A stretch of DNA of 64,000 bases, from assembly GCA_958450365.1 (NCBI GenBank), contig CAUEEP010000728.1:372001-436000 (forward strand), written 5' to 3'. Position numbers and translations under genes: made by a program. The notes beneath the pieces were generated by a model, which saw nothing but the letters and a program-made list of their open reading frames with translations, had not been told where the DNA came from and ran no database searches. Positions 5,158-14,218 of this stretch are shown here, piece after piece (positions within the stretch are counted from its first letter, which is position 1; every line of letters begins with the position of its first letter). The stretch is from Mesorhabditis belari. Lineage: Eukaryota > Nematoda > Chromadorea > Rhabditida > Rhabditidae.

Positions 5158-5509
5158 AGTTAGGTTAAATGCCAGCGTTACTATAGTTGAAAGAGTACCG
5201 TAGCCCTTTAGAAAAGCATCTTTATAGTGGATTCCGGATGAAACTGATTCCAAATAATCAATTCCTTAAAAGCTGTTAAAAATGTTTTCAATGCTTATGA
5301 GATTCTGGGAAAATAGCGGCCCGCAAAGGCAACACCGAGCCATTTCCGGTGGACGCTCGACTAAAAAGGGAACAGAAAAGGTGAAATGGTGAAAAGGTGA
5401 TCAGGGAATATTTCTAAAAAACTAAATAGATAAGTCGGAGACATCTGATTCTTGTATTTTCAGGATTTTCTGAAAAAAGGAGTTTCGAAGAAAAAGAGCT
5501 AGGATACTA

Positions 5510-6262
5510 CAGTCATGGACAAAAGTCTTTACCCCTACCGAGGTCAGCTTTTAAAACGTAAAATTTTTCAACTTTTTAACAAGTTTTAAAAATTGTTTTC
5601 AAAGTATTTTGTAGCATTTTTACTCTAGTTTTTATATCCCATAACCAAAAGAAACAACGATTTATTTTAGGCAACAAAGAACGACGTTAACAAAAAAAAA
5701 CCCTCAAAACAGGTGGACAAAAGTCTTTACCCCTTTTCAACTTTTTATTTTCTTGCTGTTGTTTCGTTATTTTTCACATAACAATGCTTTATTATTTTTT
5801 AATTCTAGTGATGCCTTCATTTCAACGTTATCGGCGTTTTTGAAGCTGAAATTGAAGGGAAAATGCTTCAATACCAAGACGCTCTGGTACTTCATTCGAC
5901 CGACGTCTGGACAAAGATCGGTCCTCAAATTTTACAGGATTTGGTCGACTCGATGCCGAGAAGGATTCAAGCAATAATTTCATCAAAAGGAGGCCCTACC
6001 AAATATTAAAATACTCGGTTTCTCTCACTTTTTGTTCGAGGGGTAAAGACTTTTGTCCACCTGTTTTGAGGGTTTTTTTTGTTAACGTCGTTCTTTGTTG
6101 CCTAAAATAAATCGTTGTTTCTTTTGGTTATGGGATATAAAAACTAGAGTAAAAATGCTACAAAATACTTTGAAAACAATTTTTAAAACTTGTTAAAAAG
6201 TTGAAAAATTTTGCGTTTTAAAAGCTGACCTCGGTAGGGGTAAAGACTTTTGTCCATGACTG
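5510..6262 (+). mobile_element. deleted Tc1/mariner-superfamily element
   Basis: The element starts CAGTCATGGACAAAAGTC and ends with the exact reverse complement, each end flanked by TA, the target duplicated by Tc1/mariner transposases. The terminal inverted repeats are unusually long, about 200 bases each (to about 5735 and from about 6035). Between them only the 3' end of a transposase reading frame remains. The element is 753 bases long, whereas complete Tc1-type elements are about 1.6 kb, so it cannot move without help. The nearly identical arms suggest fairly recent activity of the family. Confidence 0.88.
5863..6009 (+). pseudogene. C-terminal fragment of Tc1-type transposase
   Basis: The frame from 5863 to the stop at 6007-6009 gives 49 residues ending in the pattern LVDSMPRRIQAIISSKGG, then PTKY. 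Tc1-family transposases end with this kind of L-x-x-LVDSMPRR motif followed by KG and TKY. The DNA-binding domain and nearly all of the DDE catalytic core are missing, so this is a remnant inside the deleted element at 5510-6262. The assignment rests on recognising the family's C-terminal motif. Confidence 0.8.
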
Positions 6263-7080
6263 TATAGTTTTAAAAAGTTGATACACTTTAGAAAGTCTAC
6301 TAGAAAGTCTTTTCAAAGTTTACATTCGAACTACTGTAGCTCAAGTAAACCAAAGGACAAACGCGTGGGAATAAAAAAAACGGGAGATTGGAATGAATGA
6401 ATCGTCACAGTGTTCATCAAAAATTCGACCATTGAAATGAGACAAAAGGCGATTTCTTTTGGAATTAATCAAAACGTTGTCGATTTTGAAGAGCTCAAGA
6501 TGATCGTTGAGAATTCTCGAGAAAAGGCGCTTTTTCTCGAGAATTTTTTTTTCCCAATCCAATCATCATTTGACATCCCATATAACACAAGAGGCGATTG
6601 GCGCGTGAATTCTTGCTGCGGTTTTAATTTGAATTTTGGACGATTGGAATTTTGTGTCACCTTCGAAATAAGGAAAAAAAATAGGGAAATACATTTGTTT
6701 CAAAATTTCAAGATTTCAAGAAAGTTTTCAGTGACAAAAAGGCAACAATTTTTGCTTTTATCTGGGATATTTTTTGAGAAAACGGTTCGATTAAATCTCT
6801 AGTAACAAAATGGTTTTTGAATTTTTGAATTTGATGAAAAATGTTAGTTCTGCTTTTCAAGCTGAAAGATCAAATGTACCACGTGTGAATCAAGGCAAAA
6901 TTGGCTCCTCTTTCAATATTTTCAAAAACAAAAGCCTCTCTCGAAACCGAACGCCTCTAATTGGGTTCGAAAGATCGTGGTTAGGTGTGGAAGAAAAAAA
7001 GGAAAGATTTTAAATACATTATTGAAAAAAGTGGGGTATCTCGAAAAGAAAGTAGACACTAGCCATATTTTTCGGTAAGA
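6263..7080. other. intergenic, nothing recognised
   Basis: Open frames of up to 130 codons on the plus strand have no recognisable motif, no matching splice pattern and a composition like the surrounding AT-rich DNA. I see no repeat or RNA gene here. Confidence 0.5.
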
Positions 7081-7366: not shown

Positions 7367-7585
7367 TACGGATTCGCAGCAAATAGCAAAGGTAGTCAGT
7401 TATTTCGCAGCCACAGACCACATAGTGAGATTGGCCTGAGAAAAAAAACAATGAACGACGCAAACAAAACCTTGAATAGTGCGGCATTTCCAGCAAAAAC
7501 GCAAATCACACGGCCACCAATACATCTTATTCTACTATCTGAAGATACTCAGCTAACCGGTGAGATACGCATTTGGCAAATGGTA

Positions 7586-7966
7586 TAAAATTCAAACACG
7601 CCTGCTTTTTGCATTTTCTTTTCTAACTTTTTTAAAACCTTTCCATACCTGTTATTTTTTATTTTGGTTGTTATCTAAGAATCAATAAATGCAACGAACA
7701 CGCGAAAGTCTCCATGAAATTCCACCCCTCGACGAATGTAAGTTCTTTTGTTTATGCTAACGTATTTTAAGCTAAATTTAGTTAATTTAGTAAATTTTTA
7801 AAAGTTAAAAAGTCAAAGTTAATCATTACTGCTATAAGCATCTCATATCAACTTTTGTTTGGTCTGCGTTTAGTGAAGAGCGAAGCTTATATCTCTTGCT
7901 AAAGTAATTACCGACCAAATCACCTATGTTATTCTTTTGTTTTAGTCCAGGATAGACTCATCGCCG
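7586..7966 (+). pseudogene. duplicated 5' fragment of the CK1-like gene
   Basis: This segment is a direct repeat of 11925-12325. It includes the upstream region, exon 1 (start at about 7690, reading [16 protein letters not shown]), the whole first intron and the first bases of exon 2 through the codons for DRLIAGK. There the homology stops and the palindrome at 7967 begins. The kinase domain proper is absent, so it cannot make a kinase. It is either the end of a partial tandem duplication or the disrupted original 5' end, with the working gene now using the second copy. Confidence 0.75.
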
Positions 7967-8384
7967 GCAAATTCGGATTCTACCTTTAAGCCTTAAGCAT
8001 CCCATGCATCAGTCAAAAATTTTGGAACGATTAAACCAATTGATTCATAAAACACGTACAAAACTAGGACCAAAACATTTATTCAGCTAACAGGTGCGAT
8101 AATAAATGCTGATCCTTGAGATGTGATGAATCGATGATGGGAGACGGGATGAGAAGTGGCATCGCCGCTCATCTAAACAACAAAAACAAATCAAATTAGA
8201 ATATATTTCTCAACTTAAATTAGTTAGAACATTTTTTTAAGAAACGATCGATTTGAGTTGAGTTGATTTGATTTGAGGTAACAGAAGACTAAACAGAAGA
8301 AAAATAGATCGAAATTTTGCTTTTCGAGGCTGCGTTGGATGGTAAAAAAACTAGGGAAAACGGTAAGAGAAAATAAAACTAACA

Positions 8385-8839
8385 TCAGTAATCTTGGAAT
8401 TGCAAGATCATCCTCATTCCAAGAACCCCGTGCACGAACTGTCCAAAGATACTTGCGGAGTCAAAATTCAGAGTGAGGTGATGGTACGAGAGAACCCGAT
8501 ATTGACCAAATTGGTTCATGGACTAAAAGATCAAAATAAAACAAGGCTTGCTACTAGTAAAGTTTTCTTTAAACTCTCTCATACAAAAATGTTGTAATAT
8601 TTCAAAATATAAACACTAACCTCACGGACAACGTGAGAGCAATAAACCTGAGCCTTCCGACCAGGCAAAAACTTGCAGAACAGTGTTGGTGTCGGTGTCG
8701 GTGTCACTCTCGGCTCAATGCGAAAAATGTGGAGGCAGTGTCCCGCGAGATCGATAGCGATCCTCTTGGCTTGTGTATCGACTTCTCGCACAACATGTGC
8801 GCTTCCATAAGTAAATTCCAGTTCAGAGTAAGCGGCCAT
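8385..8839 (-). CDS. small hypervariable protein, left copy (possibly galectin-like)
   Basis: Exon 1 (8621-8839) starts at an ATG conserved in the right copy and encodes 73 residues. Exon 2 (8385-8522) encodes 45 more and ends at TGA, so the product is about 118 residues. No signal peptide is seen. Shared landmarks with the copy at 10243-10740 are EFTYG, CKFL, a KA pair, VV-x-E, NFDSA and HGVLGM; most of the rest differs. A short threonine-proline repeat (TPTPTP) is unique to this copy. The order of blocks faintly resembles a galectin fold (IDL strand, PR segment, FDSA-x-FG strand), but this is a weak guess. A possible third exon follows at 8065-8175, ending next to an AATAAA signal, and would matter only if the TGA is skipped by splicing. 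Confidence 0.5.
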
Positions 8840-10242
8840 CGAAGTGATTCGGAAAATTGAATATGATAAAAACTCACGCTCTTTTTGAGCTTCGAAACCA
8901 AATATTCAAATCCTAGAGACTATCCTAATTGCGATATGCAAATTTACTTTTCGTCGCTTTCCTCGTCGGCTTCATTTTCTTCGCGTTTCTGGGGTGGCCC
9001 CCCAGGAAATCATGACTAAAGTGGAGCCCCTGAAAAGTTCTTGATTGTTAAATCCTGCTGTTGGAGTTCCATTTGCATTTTAAAATTTCGAGAAGCAAAA
9101 AACAACGGAGAATGAATTTCTATGAATGTGAATGACAGAAATTCTTTGATCAAAGATCAAAGAATTTCAAAAAGATCCATTTAAAAAAAACATGACTGGG
9201 GAAAATCAAAGATCGGTGAGATTAAACCACTAAAAAACTAAAGATACGAGACAATTAAGGAAACGAGACTACGTAACAATTAAAGGTGGGTGAAATGAAG
9301 CCGTGAAATGAGTTCCTCTCAAATTGTCTCACTATTTATGTCAACACCTGCTTGCCGTTGGCAATTGGGTTGGCCCATTGCGTACGTTCTGACGTATAAA
9401 GACTTTCTCAGTAAGGTTTCTTGGAAAACCACTTCTCTTCTCTAATTTGAGAGGAACTCATTTCACGGCTTCATTTCACCCACCTTTAATTGTTAGTGTG
9501 CTTTTTAACGGCGAATTCGGATTCAAAAAAAAGAAAAAAAAACGAAAAATACAACAAAAATTAAAAAAAAAAAAAAAAATAAGAAATTACAACAAAAAAA
9601 AAAAAAAAAAAGGGGAGGCGTCCAGCAGCCCTAAATTCTGCTGCACCCTGTACGATCAATTTCACGTCTAGAGAAGTGGTTTTCCAAGAAACCTTACTGA
9701 GAAAGTCTTTATACGTCAGAACGTACGCAATGGGCCAACCCAATTGCCAACGGCAAGCAGGTGTTGACATAAATAGTGAGACAATTTGAGAGGAACTCAT
9801 TTCACGGCTTCATTTCACCCACCTTTAATTGTCTCGTATCTTTAGTTTTTTAGTGGTTTAATCTCACCGATCTTTGATTTTCCCCAGTCACGTTTTTTTT
9901 AAATGGATCTTTTTGAAATTCTTTGATCTTTGATCAAAGAATTTCTGTCATTCACATTCATAGAAATTCATTCTCCGTTGTTTTTTGCTTCTCGAAATTT
10001 TAAAATGCAAATGGAACTCCAACAGCAGGATTTAACAATCAAGAACTTTTCAGGGGCTCCACTTTAGTCATGATTTCCTGGGGGCCACCCCAGAAACGCG
10101 AAGAAAATGAAGCCGACGAGGAAAGCGACGAAAAGTAAATTTGCATATCGCAATTAGGATAGTCTCTAGGATTTGAATATTTGGTTTCGAAGCTCAAAAA
10201 GAGCGTGAGTTTTTATCATATTCAATTTTCCGAATCACTTCG

Positions 10243-10740
10243 ATGACCGCTCAACGGGAATTTACTTATGGACCCGACTGGTCTCTGCAACAAATCGATG
10301 GAACTAGGATTCATTTCATTTGCGCAGGATTCACTAGGTGGACGTTTGACTTTCAAGATCGGAATCTGGACTGCAAATTTCTTCGTAATTCGAAGGCTCG
10401 GATTGTTTGCAGGAATGTTGTCGAGGAGGTTAGTGTTTAGATTTTGAAATACAGTCGTCCCCCCTTATATGGATTTTTTTTTTTCATTGCCTTGAATTCC
10501 ATATAAGGGGTGGGGACGACTGTATTAGAGCATTTTTGTATGAGAGAGTTTAAAGAGAACTTTACTAGTAGCAAGCCTTGTTTTATTTTGATCTTTTAGG
10601 GTTACCAGAATGGTCAACTCGTTGCTGGCGCGCCCATTACACTCATTTTGAATTTTGACTCCGCAATTTCCTTTGGATTGTTCGCGCACGGGGTTCTTGG
10701 AATGCAGATGCTGACGCCTTTTCAACTCCAAGATTACTGA
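10243..10740 (+). CDS. small hypervariable protein, right copy (possibly galectin-like)
   Basis: Exon 1 (10243-10428) encodes 62 residues and exon 2 (10600-10740) encodes 46, ending at TGA. Total 108 residues. It is the inverted partner of 8385-8839. The intron, the 3' flank to about 11150 and the upstream flank are almost the same as in the partner, apart from a 71-base MITE in this intron. The coding exons share only blocks such as EFTYG, CKFL and AHGVLGM, with the first half of exon 2 (GYQNGQLVAGAPITL) quite different from the partner. Both copies are open through both exons, which argues that both are translated. Family is not recognised with confidence; a distant galectin-like domain is one possibility. 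Confidence 0.5.
10452..10522. mobile_element. 71-base foldback MITE with TA flanks
   Basis: Starts CAGTCGTCCCCCCTTATATG and ends with its near-exact reverse complement, flanked by TA on both sides. It sits inside the intron of the right-hand hypervariable gene and is missing from the left-hand copy, so it inserted after the two arms separated or was lost from one. The TA target suggests Tc1/mariner mobilisation. Confidence 0.8.
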
Positions 10741-11150
10741 TGTTAGTTTTATTTTCTCTTACCGTTTTCCCTAGTTTTTTTACCATCCAACGCAGCCTCG
10801 AAAAGCAAAATTTCGATCTATTTTTCTTCTGTTTAGTCTTCTGTTACCTCAAATCAAATCAACTCAAATCGATCGTTTCTTAAAAAAATGTTCTAACTAA
10901 TTTAAGTTGAGAAATATATTCTAATTTGATTTGTTTTTGTTGTTTAGATGAGCGGCGATGCCTCTTCTCATTCCGTCTCCCATCATCGATTCATCACATC
11001 TCAAGGATCAGCATTTATTATCGCACCTGTTAGCTGAATAAATGTTTTGGTCCTAGTTTTGTACGTGTTTTATGAATCAATTGGTTTAATCGTTCCAAAA
11101 TTTTTGACTGATGCATGGGATGCTTAAGGCTTAAAGGTAGAATCCGAATT

Positions 11151-11924
11151 CGCCGTCAGAAAGTAGGCATTGCTAAAAAAAAAGTTCCATTTTTCCGGCC
11201 ATGAAATACGAGTACCGACCTCGAGTACTCGAGGTCCAAATCTCGACTCCTGTACGAGAAACCGTTGTTTCCGTATGGAAAAACGGAATCTACGTACTCG
11301 AAAACCCAGGAAAAGCTGTTTTTCTGAGCAATTTTACGAAGAAACTCCTTTGCCGTAGCGACTCCAAGAAATCCCTAACAAAAAGTGGAAAACCGACCAG
11401 AAACTGAACGGTTTTGCACTTTTTCCGAAAAAGTCCCACATGCGAATTTTTCTCCAGGAACCTATTGTGAAATACAAGTTCTGGACCTAATTTTCAGTGT
11501 AGAATCCGAATTCGCATGTTACGGGTGGTAGTGACTTTAGAAAAGTCCCACAAAAAAATTTGTTAGCAAAGTCATATCCAGAAGAACAAATTCGAATTCC
11601 TCGTCAAATTTTAGACTAGAAAAAGGTTTTTCCGAACATTTTTCATGCAATCGGGAATTTTCTCAAAGAAAAGTTCATTTTTGGCCCGACAACCACATAT
11701 TCTTTCATAGCTCTCTATGGGCAAAACGGTTTTTATCGGGAATTTCTCGGGATCCATACGAATCACAAATGAAAAGTCAAGTTTTATAGGTTTTTGACCA
11801 AGGCAAAGCGATTGCCGTCAAAAAAAGTACACTTTCTCAATGAGAAGTACCAGTTTTACTATATAAACAAAACTTTTTCGTAAAAAGTGCAAAACCGTTC
11901 AGTTTCTGGTCGGTTTTGCACTGT
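11151..11924. other. intergenic with degenerate inverted repeats
   Basis: Contains a pair of inverted segments, GACCAGAAACTGAACGGTTT at about 11396 and its reverse complement at about 11890, about 30 bases each. There is a further copy of the palindrome-end motif TAGAATCCGAATTCGC at about 11501. Open frames here have no recognisable motif. It may be a remnant of the same element that made the palindrome. Confidence 0.5.
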
Positions 11925-12041
11925 ATAAAACTCAAACACGCCTGCTTTTTGCATTTTCTTTTCTAACTTTTTAAAAACCTTTCCTTACATACCTGTTATT
12001 TTTTTATTTTAGAAAGCTTGCTTAAATCTAAGAATCAATAA

Positions 12042-13823
12042 ATGCAACGAACACGCGAAAGTCTCCATGAAATTCCAGCCCTCGACGCATGTAAGTTCTT
12101 TTGTTATTATGCTAACGTATTTTAAGCTAAATTTAGTTAATTTACTAAATTTTTAAAAGTTAAAAAGTCAAAGTTAATCATTACTGCTATAAACATCTCA
12201 AATCAACTTTTGTTTGGTCTGCGTTTAGTGAAGAGCGAAGCTTATATCTCTTGCTAAAGTAATTACCGACCAAATCACCTATGTTATTCTTTTGTTTTAG
12301 TCCAAGATAGACTCATCGCCGGCAAATACAAACTCATCAAGAAAGTCGGCTCTGGGTCCTTCGGCGACATCTTTATCAGCATCAACACTGAGAGTTCCGA
12401 AGAAGTTGCGATCAAAGTTGAAAAAACCTCGGTAAACTGTAGGCTCGTTTTTATAGCGCTTGATTTAGACATCGCATCCACAGCTGCACTACGAATCGAA
12501 AGTCTATAGTATTCTTCAAGGAGGTGTTGGCATACCAGCATTAAGATGGTAATGTTTATGTTTTTGCTTCGGTTCTGTTAGTTTTAGTGGTTAACATGAT
12601 TAAAAATCTGTTCTAGAAAAGAATTATGTGTCTTTTAGGTATGGCAGCGACCAAGGCTTTAAAATCATGGTAGTGGAGTTGCTTGGACCGTCTTTGGAAG
12701 ATCTCTTCAATTACTGCTCTCGCAAATTCTCTGGGAAGACGACGTTGCAGCTTGCCGATCAGATGATTGTTCGAATTGAATACCTGCACGGGAAGAATTT
12801 CATACATCGTGATGTAAAGCCAGACAATTTCCTGATGGGCATTGGACGTTACAATCAACGACTCTACATCATCGACTATGGTTTGGCAAAGAAGTATGCC
12901 TTTAGCCTATCTCTGTAGTCAAAAAGGAAAACCAACGGCTACTGGCTTAATTTCCTTTTGTTCATAAACTGATTGTGCTTTACGGGATTTTAAACGGATT
13001 GAGAAATTGGCATTAACAAGTTTCAGTACCATTGTTGTGGTTAGATAGCAAGCATATTACTTTAAAATGTTTTTATGTTTAGATTTCGTGATAGCATCTC
13101 GCGCACCCACATTGCATATCGAGAAGGGAAAAATCTAACTGGAACCGCTAGATATGCTTCACTTAATGCACATCTTGGTATTGAACAAAGTCGGCGGTAT
13201 GTGCTATTTTAGCGTTATTCGAGTATGATACATTAGTGATGATATGGAGTCGATTGGGTACTGCCTCGTTTACTTCGCTGCTGGAAGTCTCCCATGGCAA
13301 GGTCTTAGAGCAGTCACGAAGAAACAAAAGTACGAAAAGATTGCTGAAAAGGTAACACTTTTGCCTAGAATAAATTCATTGAGGAATTAAATTTAACAGT
13401 AACAGATGTTTGTTAAACTTACCAATAGCTGTTGAAACTCGATATTTTAGCATGAAAAAGAATTTAGAAATCTTCAAATCCAATAGATTCTATATTCTTG
13501 GAGCTTGAAAAACACTAAAATTCGGAAATAAAAAAATTTATTTTAGAAAATGGCCGTATCGATTGAAGAGCTGTGCAAAGATTTGCCAAGTGTCTACGCA
13601 GATTACCTAAAACGTTGTCGCAATCTCGCTTTTCATGAGGAACCGGATTACTATTCCATGAGGCAAATTTTCAGGCGCTACTTTCGCAGTCAAAACTATG
13701 CGGTTGGGATTTACCATCAGAGAAACTTTCATTAATTTTCTTTAGGTTGATCTCGATTATGATTGGATGCATGTAGGCGGTAACGGTACGTCGGGAAGTT
13801 CAACCGCTGCTCAAAGAATGTAA
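12042..13823 (+). CDS. casein kinase 1-like serine/threonine kinase
   Basis: A CK1-family kinase in about seven exons. Exon 1 is 12042-12090 and exon 2 is 12301-12431. Motifs in order: glycine loop [13 protein letters not shown]-binding lysine in [32 protein letters not shown], catalytic loop [21 protein letters not shown], the CK1 signature [20 protein letters not shown], then [13 protein letters not shown] and LPWQG. CK1 enzymes phosphorylate Ser/Thr on acidic or primed substrates. The magnesium-binding DFG reads DYG, tolerated in some kinases but unusual. The length (about 330 residues) and short non-conserved tail match the small CK1-type kinases that nematodes have in large numbers, many used in the male germline. 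An acceptor TTTTATTTTAG lies about 30 bases before the ATG, consistent with trans-splicing or a 5' UTR intron. Confidence 0.9.
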
Positions 13824-14218
13824 ACATATTTTTTGGTGCAAATATTCTCTTTGCTTATACACATTTCTCGCCTTCCAGTTGTTTTGTTTGCTCAAGGACA
13901 CTTGTTATTATTGATTCTACCTGCAATTTTTTTCGATTGATGTTTGGGGAATAGGCCTATTCTCTACTCTAACGTACATATTTCAATCGCATTTCCTGTT
14001 GTTATAAGAATTTTTTCTAAATGAATTTTACAATGACTTCTTTGAGTTGCAAAATCCGTGAAAGGGACAAAATTATGCACAAGTTGGAGATTACAAAAAG
14101 TGTCGGAATCATCAGAGAGTAGTGAAAGTCATGCACGCTTTCCTTTCACTTACTTCTTCCGTACGCAGCTACATTTGCGGAAAATTGTTTTAAATTTTTA
14201 TTTATCACATTTTGTGGA
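13824..14218. other. convergent intergenic region
   Basis: Short spacer between the 3' ends of the CK1-like gene (plus) and the nuclear receptor gene (minus). Nothing beyond AT-rich 3' flank sequence is recognised. Confidence 0.6.

What the first reader, a model, noticed from the sequence alone, without database searches (positions are those of the whole stretch)
8385..10740. Inverted gene pair with near-identical introns and flanks but strongly diverged exons
The two small genes in the palindrome share a nearly identical intron (starting GTTAGTGTTT, ending TTGATCTTTTAG), a nearly identical 3' flank of over 400 bases and a nearly identical upstream flank. The coding parts are not similar in the same way. 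Exon 1 is 73 codons in one copy and 62 in the other, with only short shared blocks (EFTYG, CKFL, VV-x-E), and the first half of exon 2 differs almost completely. Divergence switches on and off at the splice sites. Neutral decay would give the opposite pattern. Strong diversifying selection on the protein, or gene conversion that homogenises the non-coding parts while exons are replaced from other paralogues, would give this. Both copies stay open.
Basis: seen in the sequence. Interest (0 to 1): 0.88.

Follow-up and report, generated by a model that had tools for sequence, protein, structure and literature searches.

The report
Mirror-image gene pair, diverged exons only
In the roundworm Mesorhabditis belari, two mirror-image neighbouring genes have almost identical non-coding DNA but very different protein-coding DNA, likely because gene conversion keeps recopying the non-coding parts between the two arms while selection would shield the coding parts, much as in primate colour-vision genes.

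Summary
The window is a contig of the nematode Mesorhabditis belari, whose females are mostly asexual. A palindrome (arms 7965-9438, 9670-11155) carries two head-to-head two-exon genes. Between arms the flanks differ at 4 of 988 aligned bases and the intron at 4 of 98 (a hairpin insert set aside), but coding sequence at 114 of 321; the proteins share 49 of 106 aligned residues. All five coding indels are multiples of 3; none of four non-coding ones is. Diversifying selection alone is rejected: exon synonymous divergence (dS 0.29) is itself above the intron value (dS 0.04: P = 1.5e-4), so the exons look older than the DNA around them. Measured against a third, broken copy, L-R divergence rises from 3' flank to intron to exon 2 (overall P = 2.5e-6). 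Best reading: gene conversion between the arms recently re-homogenised non-coding DNA while coding blocks escaped, probably because two different proteins are favoured (omega 2.15, P = 0.041, weak). No donor paralogue for the exons was found. Galectin membership is not supported. The pattern is of a known kind (red/green opsins), here in an extreme palindromic form.

The parts
7965..9438 (-). left palindrome arm (gene L orientation)
   Evidence: inverted repeats (I1, I2, I4-I9); alignment
9670..11155 (+). right palindrome arm (gene R orientation)
9439..9669 (.). 231-nt spacer between the arms; includes a 52-nt inverted repeat (9444-9495) of left-arm sequence 9274-9325, and A-rich sequence
   Evidence: (I5, I10)
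8621..8839 (-). gene L exon 1, 73 codons, open from ATG
   Evidence: same residues as the start of NCBI protein P0002
8523..8620 (-). gene L intron, 98 nt, GT...AG
8385..8522 (-). gene L exon 2, 45 codons plus stop
   Evidence: NCBI model P0002 departs from it after GQYR
10243..10428 (+). gene R exon 1, 62 codons, open from ATG
   Evidence: same residues as the start of NCBI protein P0001
10429..10599 (+). gene R intron, 171 nt, GT...AG
10450..10524 (.). 71-nt hairpin element with CAGTCGTCCCC terminal inverted repeats and TA on both sides, only in gene R's intron (MITE-like)
   Evidence: partial 84% match at G000:C570
10600..10740 (+). gene R exon 2, 46 codons plus stop
   Evidence: NCBI model P0001 departs from it after FAHG
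7965..8384 (-). gene L 3' flank with AATAAA on the minus strand at 8083-8078
   Evidence: 412 of 415 aligned bases identical to R's; one 5-nt indel
10741..11155 (+). gene R 3' flank with AATAAA at 11037
8840..9438 (-). gene L 5' flank
   Evidence: 572 of 573 aligned bases identical to R's; 25-nt and 1-nt indels
9670..10242 (+). gene R 5' flank
7584..7972 (+). truncated copy of the 5' part of the casein-kinase-like gene that starts near 11924; its break is the outer end of the left arm (limits read by eye)
   Evidence: 17 of 386 aligned bases differ, ragged ends included; junction printed; kinase name from the translated motif, recalled, no family search made

Best explanation
The two arms of this palindrome carry two open genes whose coding parts are far more diverged than the intron and flanks around them, likely because gene conversion between the arms has repeatedly recopied the non-coding DNA while the coding blocks escaped. 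Shown: three tiers of L-R divergence (flanks 0.4%, intron 4%, exons 36% of aligned bases), with synonymous exon sites also strongly diverged; this points to exon sequences older than their surroundings rather than to faster protein change alone. Shown: relative to a third, broken copy, L-R divergence is not a constant fraction across regions, as it would be after one duplication with constant regional rates. Inferred: conversions start in the near-identical flanks and stop at the heterologous exons; the 98-nt intron, an island between two diverged exons and further interrupted in R by a hairpin insert, was last homogenised earlier than the flanks. Inferred: the coding blocks stay apart because conversions across them would be selected against, two different proteins being favoured; boundaries close to start codon, splice sites and stop codon fit protein-level selection and no purely mutational process that I know. 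Not known: what the proteins do.
For: Divergence by part. Intron above flanks, P = 0.003. Exon dS 0.29; dS = 0.04 rejected at P = 1.5e-4, dS = 0.003 at P = 5e-7. Three-way patterns with the broken copy T (L013:4582-4808 and the bases after it), sites where L equals R but not T against sites where L and R differ: 3' flank 11:0 (first 33 aligned sites only, the rest aligns poorly), intron 15:4, exon 2 second half 20:12, exon 2 first half 5:22; heterogeneity P = 2.5e-6. Flank divergence is below the species' published heterozygosity of about 1.3% (PMC10456839, passages): 4 seen where 12.8 expected, P = 0.004. A truncated kinase copy joined to the left arm's outer end differs from the full gene at 17 of 386 sites, like the intron (P = 1.0) and unlike the flanks (P = 6e-7), suggesting the flanks were homogenised after the locus took shape. 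Coding maintained: no stops, 5 of 5 exon indels are multiples of 3 (chance 0.004), 0 of 4 non-coding ones. Omega 2.15, P = 0.041.
Against: Only two intact sequences and one truncated pseudogene were found, so no formal conversion test across species or strains was possible. Omega above 1 is weak: per exon P = 0.10 and 0.27, NG86 P = 0.40, and much of exon 1 and the first half of exon 2 aligns uncertainly. The intron counts are small (4 of 98); in the three-way counts intron against exon 2 second half is not significant (P = 0.35), nor is 3' flank against intron (P = 0.27). R-T divergence in exon 2 (33%) also exceeds that in the intron (18%), so part of the exon excess is simply a faster exon rate. 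The L side of exon 2 is faster than R (16 against 4 polarised changes, P = 0.012), which conversion alone does not predict and which could by itself raise the exon 2 ratios. The 17 of 386 kinase differences include a few at ragged alignment ends. Short-read polishing of the assembly could make the arms look more alike than they are; I had no reads.
Confidence: 0.68

Rival explanations
1. Diversifying selection alone: a recent inverted duplication without conversion, followed by very fast amino-acid change in both proteins.
For: Boundaries at start, splice sites and stop; omega 2.15, P = 0.041; in the alignable last 28 codons of exon 2 the data tolerate low dS (dS 0.04 is within 0.8 log units of the best value tried); L branch accelerated.
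Against: Whole-gene dS equal to intron or flank divergence is rejected (P = 1.5e-4 and 5e-7) and would need omega of about 19 or 290; intron and flanks, both non-coding, differ from each other (P = 0.003).
Confidence: 0.12
2. Fixed heterozygosity: the palindrome joined two long-diverged alleles (or paralogues) of one gene in a single event, and their non-coding parts were already alike, or became alike by conversion. This overlaps with the best explanation and differs in where the exon divergence came from.
For: Exon dS 0.29 exceeds the age suggested by the truncated kinase copy at the junction (17/386) and by the intron (4/98), so the exons look older than the rearrangement.
Against: The kinase duplication need not date the palindrome; searches with the 3' flank and with both outer flanks found no allelic copy of the locus (only the best candidates are scored), so allele diversity cannot be seen; flanks at 0.4% are below average allelic divergence of 1.3%, so conversion is still needed.
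Confidence: 0.13
3. Assembly artefact: collapse or mis-polishing homogenised the flanks, or a fold-back read created the second arm.
For: Palindromes can arise from erroneous scaffolding, as PMC7953838 warns (passages); reads were not available.
Against: A fold-back copy would be identical throughout; 114 coding differences with 5 of 5 coding indels in phase are not read error. The intron insert and flank indels differ between arms.
Confidence: 0.05
4. Exons replaced in blocks from other paralogues by conversion.
For: In the first half of exon 2, R shares more states with T than L shares with R (10 against 5), unlike the intron (2 against 15).
Against: Genome searches found no other copy of either exon 1 (E up to 1 and 10); protein searches, which need shared 5-residue words, returned only the two genes' own NCBI entries.
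Confidence: 0.05

Closest known systems
Primate red/green (L/M) opsin genes
   Same: Exon divergence exceeds intron divergence; introns repeatedly homogenised by conversion while exons keep older differences (gibbon study PMC3213168, abstract and outline; review PMC3924837, passages).
   Different: Human opsin copies lie about 24 kb apart and differ at some exon sites; here the copies form a palindrome, the whole coding region is diverged (49 of 106 aligned residues shared) and the function is unknown.
C. elegans fog-2 / ftr-1
   Same: Adjacent nematode paralogues with conversion in some parts while one coding part stays distinct; overall Ks 28% (PMC3966223, passages), similar to dS 0.29 here.
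   Different: Direct tandem; the conversion tracts shown lie in coding sequence, and the distinct part of fog-2 was recruited sequence without homology to ftr-1.
Palindromes of parthenogenetic animals and of primate Y chromosomes
   Same: Inverted arms that can exchange by conversion; PMC7953838 counted 2 palindromes with 6 potentially affected genes in M. belari (passages); whether this locus is one of them I could not see.
   Different: There conversion is discussed as acting on genes; here it appears to have spared the coding parts. That paper concludes that palindromes play no major role in the parthenogens it studied.
Snake venom phospholipase A2 isozyme genes
   Same: Introns and untranslated regions more alike than exons (recalled; in PMC4280545, I saw passages and reference titles that do not state it).
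   Different: Multi-gene venom families with omega clearly above 1 (recalled); here one pair and weak evidence for omega above 1.

Membership tests
Conversion-homogenised paralogue pair with protected exons (opsin type) | Exon divergence significantly above intron divergence | tested here: met
   114/321 against 4/98, P = 2.8e-11; synonymous sites too (22 of 70 against 4/98, P = 1.6e-6; codon model)
Conversion-homogenised paralogue pair with protected exons (opsin type) | Different parts of the pair have different ages (mosaic genealogy) | tested here: met
   Three-way pattern heterogeneity P = 2.5e-6 with copy T, exon 2, intron and first 33 aligned sites of the 3' flank only; two of the pairwise contrasts are not significant (P = 0.35 and 0.27). 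Faster change of L could add to it
Conversion-homogenised paralogue pair with protected exons (opsin type) | Across species, intron trees group by species and exon trees by gene | not testable with these tools
   states that this genome has no relatives in the held set
Conversion-homogenised paralogue pair with protected exons (opsin type) | Selection keeps the coding difference | tested here: inconclusive
   Omega 2.15, P = 0.041; NG86 P = 0.40; frames open and indels in phase
Galectin (PF00337) | Match to the Pfam profile | tested here: not met
   No Pfam family at E up to 10 for L, R or P0001; none of the 44 PF00337 matches listed for the genome lies on contig C541. UniRef names P0001 'Galectin'; I saw no basis for it
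Galectin (PF00337) | Sugar-binding residues (H-x-N-x-R and W-x-x-E-x-R, recalled) | tested here: not met
   Neither motif is in either protein by reading; L has no tryptophan
Galectin (PF00337) | Beta-sandwich fold | tested here: inconclusive
   Single-sequence AlphaFold2 model of P0001, mean pLDDT 38.7, not interpretable

The most novel reading that the evidence does not exclude
The palindrome is a locked two-protein cassette: it welded two long-diverged versions of one gene into a permanent, heritable pair in an asexual lineage, and arm-to-arm conversion keeps their mirrored promoters, splice signals and untranslated regions the same while every coding block is left free to diverge, so that regulation is shared and protein identity is not.
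Probability: 0.2. Interest if true: 0.68.

Novelty: new member of a known kind. Interest (0 to 1): 0.45.

Why it matters
Concerted evolution usually makes paralogues look falsely young. Here three clocks sit in one 3-kb locus (exons, intron, flanks), so the action of conversion and of selection against it can be read side by side, in a nematode whose females are mostly asexual. Palindromes were proposed to limit mutation accumulation in asexuals, although PMC7953838 (passages) concludes that they play no major role in the parthenogens it studied. If strain data confirm the reading, the pair would be a compact test of whether arm-to-arm conversion can preserve shared regulation while two proteins diverge.

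Tried and rejected
Galectin reading: Pfam none for L, R and P0001, NCBIfam none for P0001 and P0002, PDB sequence search with P0001 gave 4 hits, all to CoA-transferases, best E 0.61, structure model too poor to search, so no fold search was run.

Third copy T as proof of exon replacement: T's sequence upstream of the intron, up to about 20 bases before it, matches other places in the genome, so T has probably lost exon 1 by rearrangement; its missing exon 1 is not evidence of fast evolution.

NCBI gene models P0001 and P0002 leave out different pieces of exon 2 and end in a shared 3' exon. I prefer the two-exon model because the end of exon 2 is recognisable in T up to the stop, but RNA is needed. 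Under the NCBI models the only two inner substitutions of the 3' flank (8157, 8148) would change amino acids.

Palindrome as a mobile element: the motif GAATCCGAATTCGC (0-1 mismatches) sits at both outer ends, in the spacer and at 11502, but the exact 16-base form TAGAATCCGAATTCGC was found only twice in the genome, both here, so no element family was found.

Allelic copy of the locus: none found with the 3' flank or with either outer flank, so heterozygosity at the locus could not be examined.

Full report
What it is. The window is contig C541 of a 207.6-Mb assembly. Its length, 2,837,532 bases, equals that of the contig listed for NCBI proteins P0001 and P0002 of Mesorhabditis belari, and both proteins match the two genes here over exon 1 and the start of exon 2. 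M. [quoted passage not shown]

Anatomy. A palindrome with a 231-nt spacer holds two head-to-head genes, each with two exons. Gene L is on the minus strand (8839-8385), gene R on the plus strand (10243-10740). Each has one GT-AG intron, 98 nt in L and 171 nt in R; the difference is a 71-nt hairpin with CAGTCGTCCCC ends plus one TA, a MITE-like insertion. Both have an AATAAA about 300 bases after the stop. The outer end of the left arm abuts a truncated 5' copy of the kinase-like gene that begins after the right arm.

The observation. Between arms, aligned differences are 1/573 (5' flank), 76/186 (exon 1), 4/98 (intron, insert set aside; 5/98 as MAFFT placed it), 38/135 (exon 2) and 3/415 (3' flank). 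The proteins share 49 of 106 aligned residues (48 in the alignment). Exon indels are 6, 6, 21, 3 and 6 nt, all in phase; non-coding ones 25, 1, 5 and 73 nt, none a multiple of three. A simulation gives about a 2% chance that both copies would stay free of stops under neutral change of this size (0.14 for one branch). So both are, or were until recently, likely maintained as proteins.

Selection alone does not do it. If the copies were one recent duplicate pushed apart by protein selection, synonymous sites should be as alike as the intron and flanks. A pairwise codon model gives dN 0.63, dS 0.29, omega 2.15 (against omega 1, P = 0.041; exon 1 alone P = 0.10, exon 2 alone P = 0.27); fixing dS at 0.04 or 0.003 is rejected at P = 1.5e-4 and 5e-7. 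Counting by NG86 gives 22.3 of 70 synonymous and 93.7 of 248 non-synonymous sites changed, P = 0.40 for a difference. Results against this: the alignment of much of exon 1 and of the first half of exon 2 is uncertain, and in the well-aligned last 28 codons a low dS is not excluded.

A third copy. DNA like the intron and exon 2 lies on C672 and C677, apparently two haplotype contigs (99.4% over the two longest matches). This copy T has an in-frame stop and a 5-nt gap in exon 2 and no recognisable exon 1; the sequence in its place resembles other places in the genome. As outgroup it yields, for L=R-not-T against L-not-R sites: 3' flank 11:0 (first 33 aligned sites; 53:0 over a poor alignment of 119), intron 15:4, exon 2 second half 20:12, exon 2 first half 5:22 (P = 2.5e-6). 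One duplication with constant regional rates would give a constant ratio. Not every pair of regions differs: intron against exon 2 second half P = 0.35, 3' flank against intron P = 0.27. In exon 2, polarised changes are 16 on L and 4 on R (P = 0.012), so L has changed faster; R and T also differ more in exon 2 (33%) than in the intron (18%).

Clocks. Flanks (4/988) are less diverged than the intron (4/98, P = 0.003) and than the truncated kinase duplication joined to the left arm (17/386, ragged ends included, P = 6e-7); intron and kinase duplication agree (P = 1.0). Flanks are also below the species' average heterozygosity of about 1.3% (PMC10456839, passages; P = 0.004). The order exons, then intron, then flanks is what conversion between arms would give if tracts run through homologous flanks and halt at heterologous exons. 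That a locus-forming event of about 4% age holds exons of dS 0.29 suggests the two coding versions were already different when the palindrome arose, but the kinase duplication need not be the same event.

Where do the exons come from? Genome searches with R (E up to 1) and L (E up to 10) returned the two genes and T's exon 2 only (only candidates of a loose first look are scored). Searches of 5.8 billion proteins, which need shared 5-residue words, returned only the NCBI entries of the two genes themselves (1 hit of 2 candidates; 1 of 1). Replacement from surviving paralogues is therefore unsupported.

Function. Unknown. No Pfam or NCBIfam family; single-sequence model unusable. The galectin profile lists 44 matches elsewhere in this genome, none on this contig.

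What is known. The same signature is described for opsins: in gibbons exon divergence exceeds intron divergence, and intron trees place duplications multiple times in different species (PMC3213168, abstract); a review explains it as selection restricting conversion and cites two-locus models (PMC3924837, passages). In C. [quoted passage not shown] Palindromes in M. belari were counted before, 2 with 6 genes (PMC7953838, passages). My searches 'Mesorhabditis belari' (17 papers, listing) and 'Mesorhabditis, palindrom, gene conversion' (1 paper) showed no title on this pair; supplements were not seen and most subscription papers are not in that library.

Verdict. The rivals listed overlap in part, so their odds need not sum to one.

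Noticed in passing
5508-6264: Inverted-repeat element (arms 195 nt, 99% complementary); its right part, about 5833-6265, has 32 listed matches at 95-97% identity across the genome (capped list), so a young repeat family.
   Followed up: no
7584-7972 and about 11924-13830: Truncated copy of a casein-kinase-like gene at the left arm's outer end, and an apparently fuller copy after the right arm; 17 of 386 aligned bases differ. The kinase name rests on the translated motif, not on a family search.
   Followed up: partly
7967-7980, 9511-9524, 11140-11153, 11502-11515: Motif GAATCCGAATTCGC (0-1 mismatches) at both arm ends, in the spacer and about 350 bases beyond the right arm; 4 matches with up to 2 mismatches where 0.56 are expected.
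   Followed up: partly
8157 and 8148 (L), 10963 and 10972 (R): The only two inner substitutions of the 3' flank lie 9 bases apart in the stretch that the NCBI models read as a last exon, and would change S/T and S/P there.
   Followed up: no
L013 and L014: The third copy T lies on two near-identical contigs, apparently two haplotypes, whose surroundings are themselves duplicated at about 78-93% identity.
   Followed up: partly
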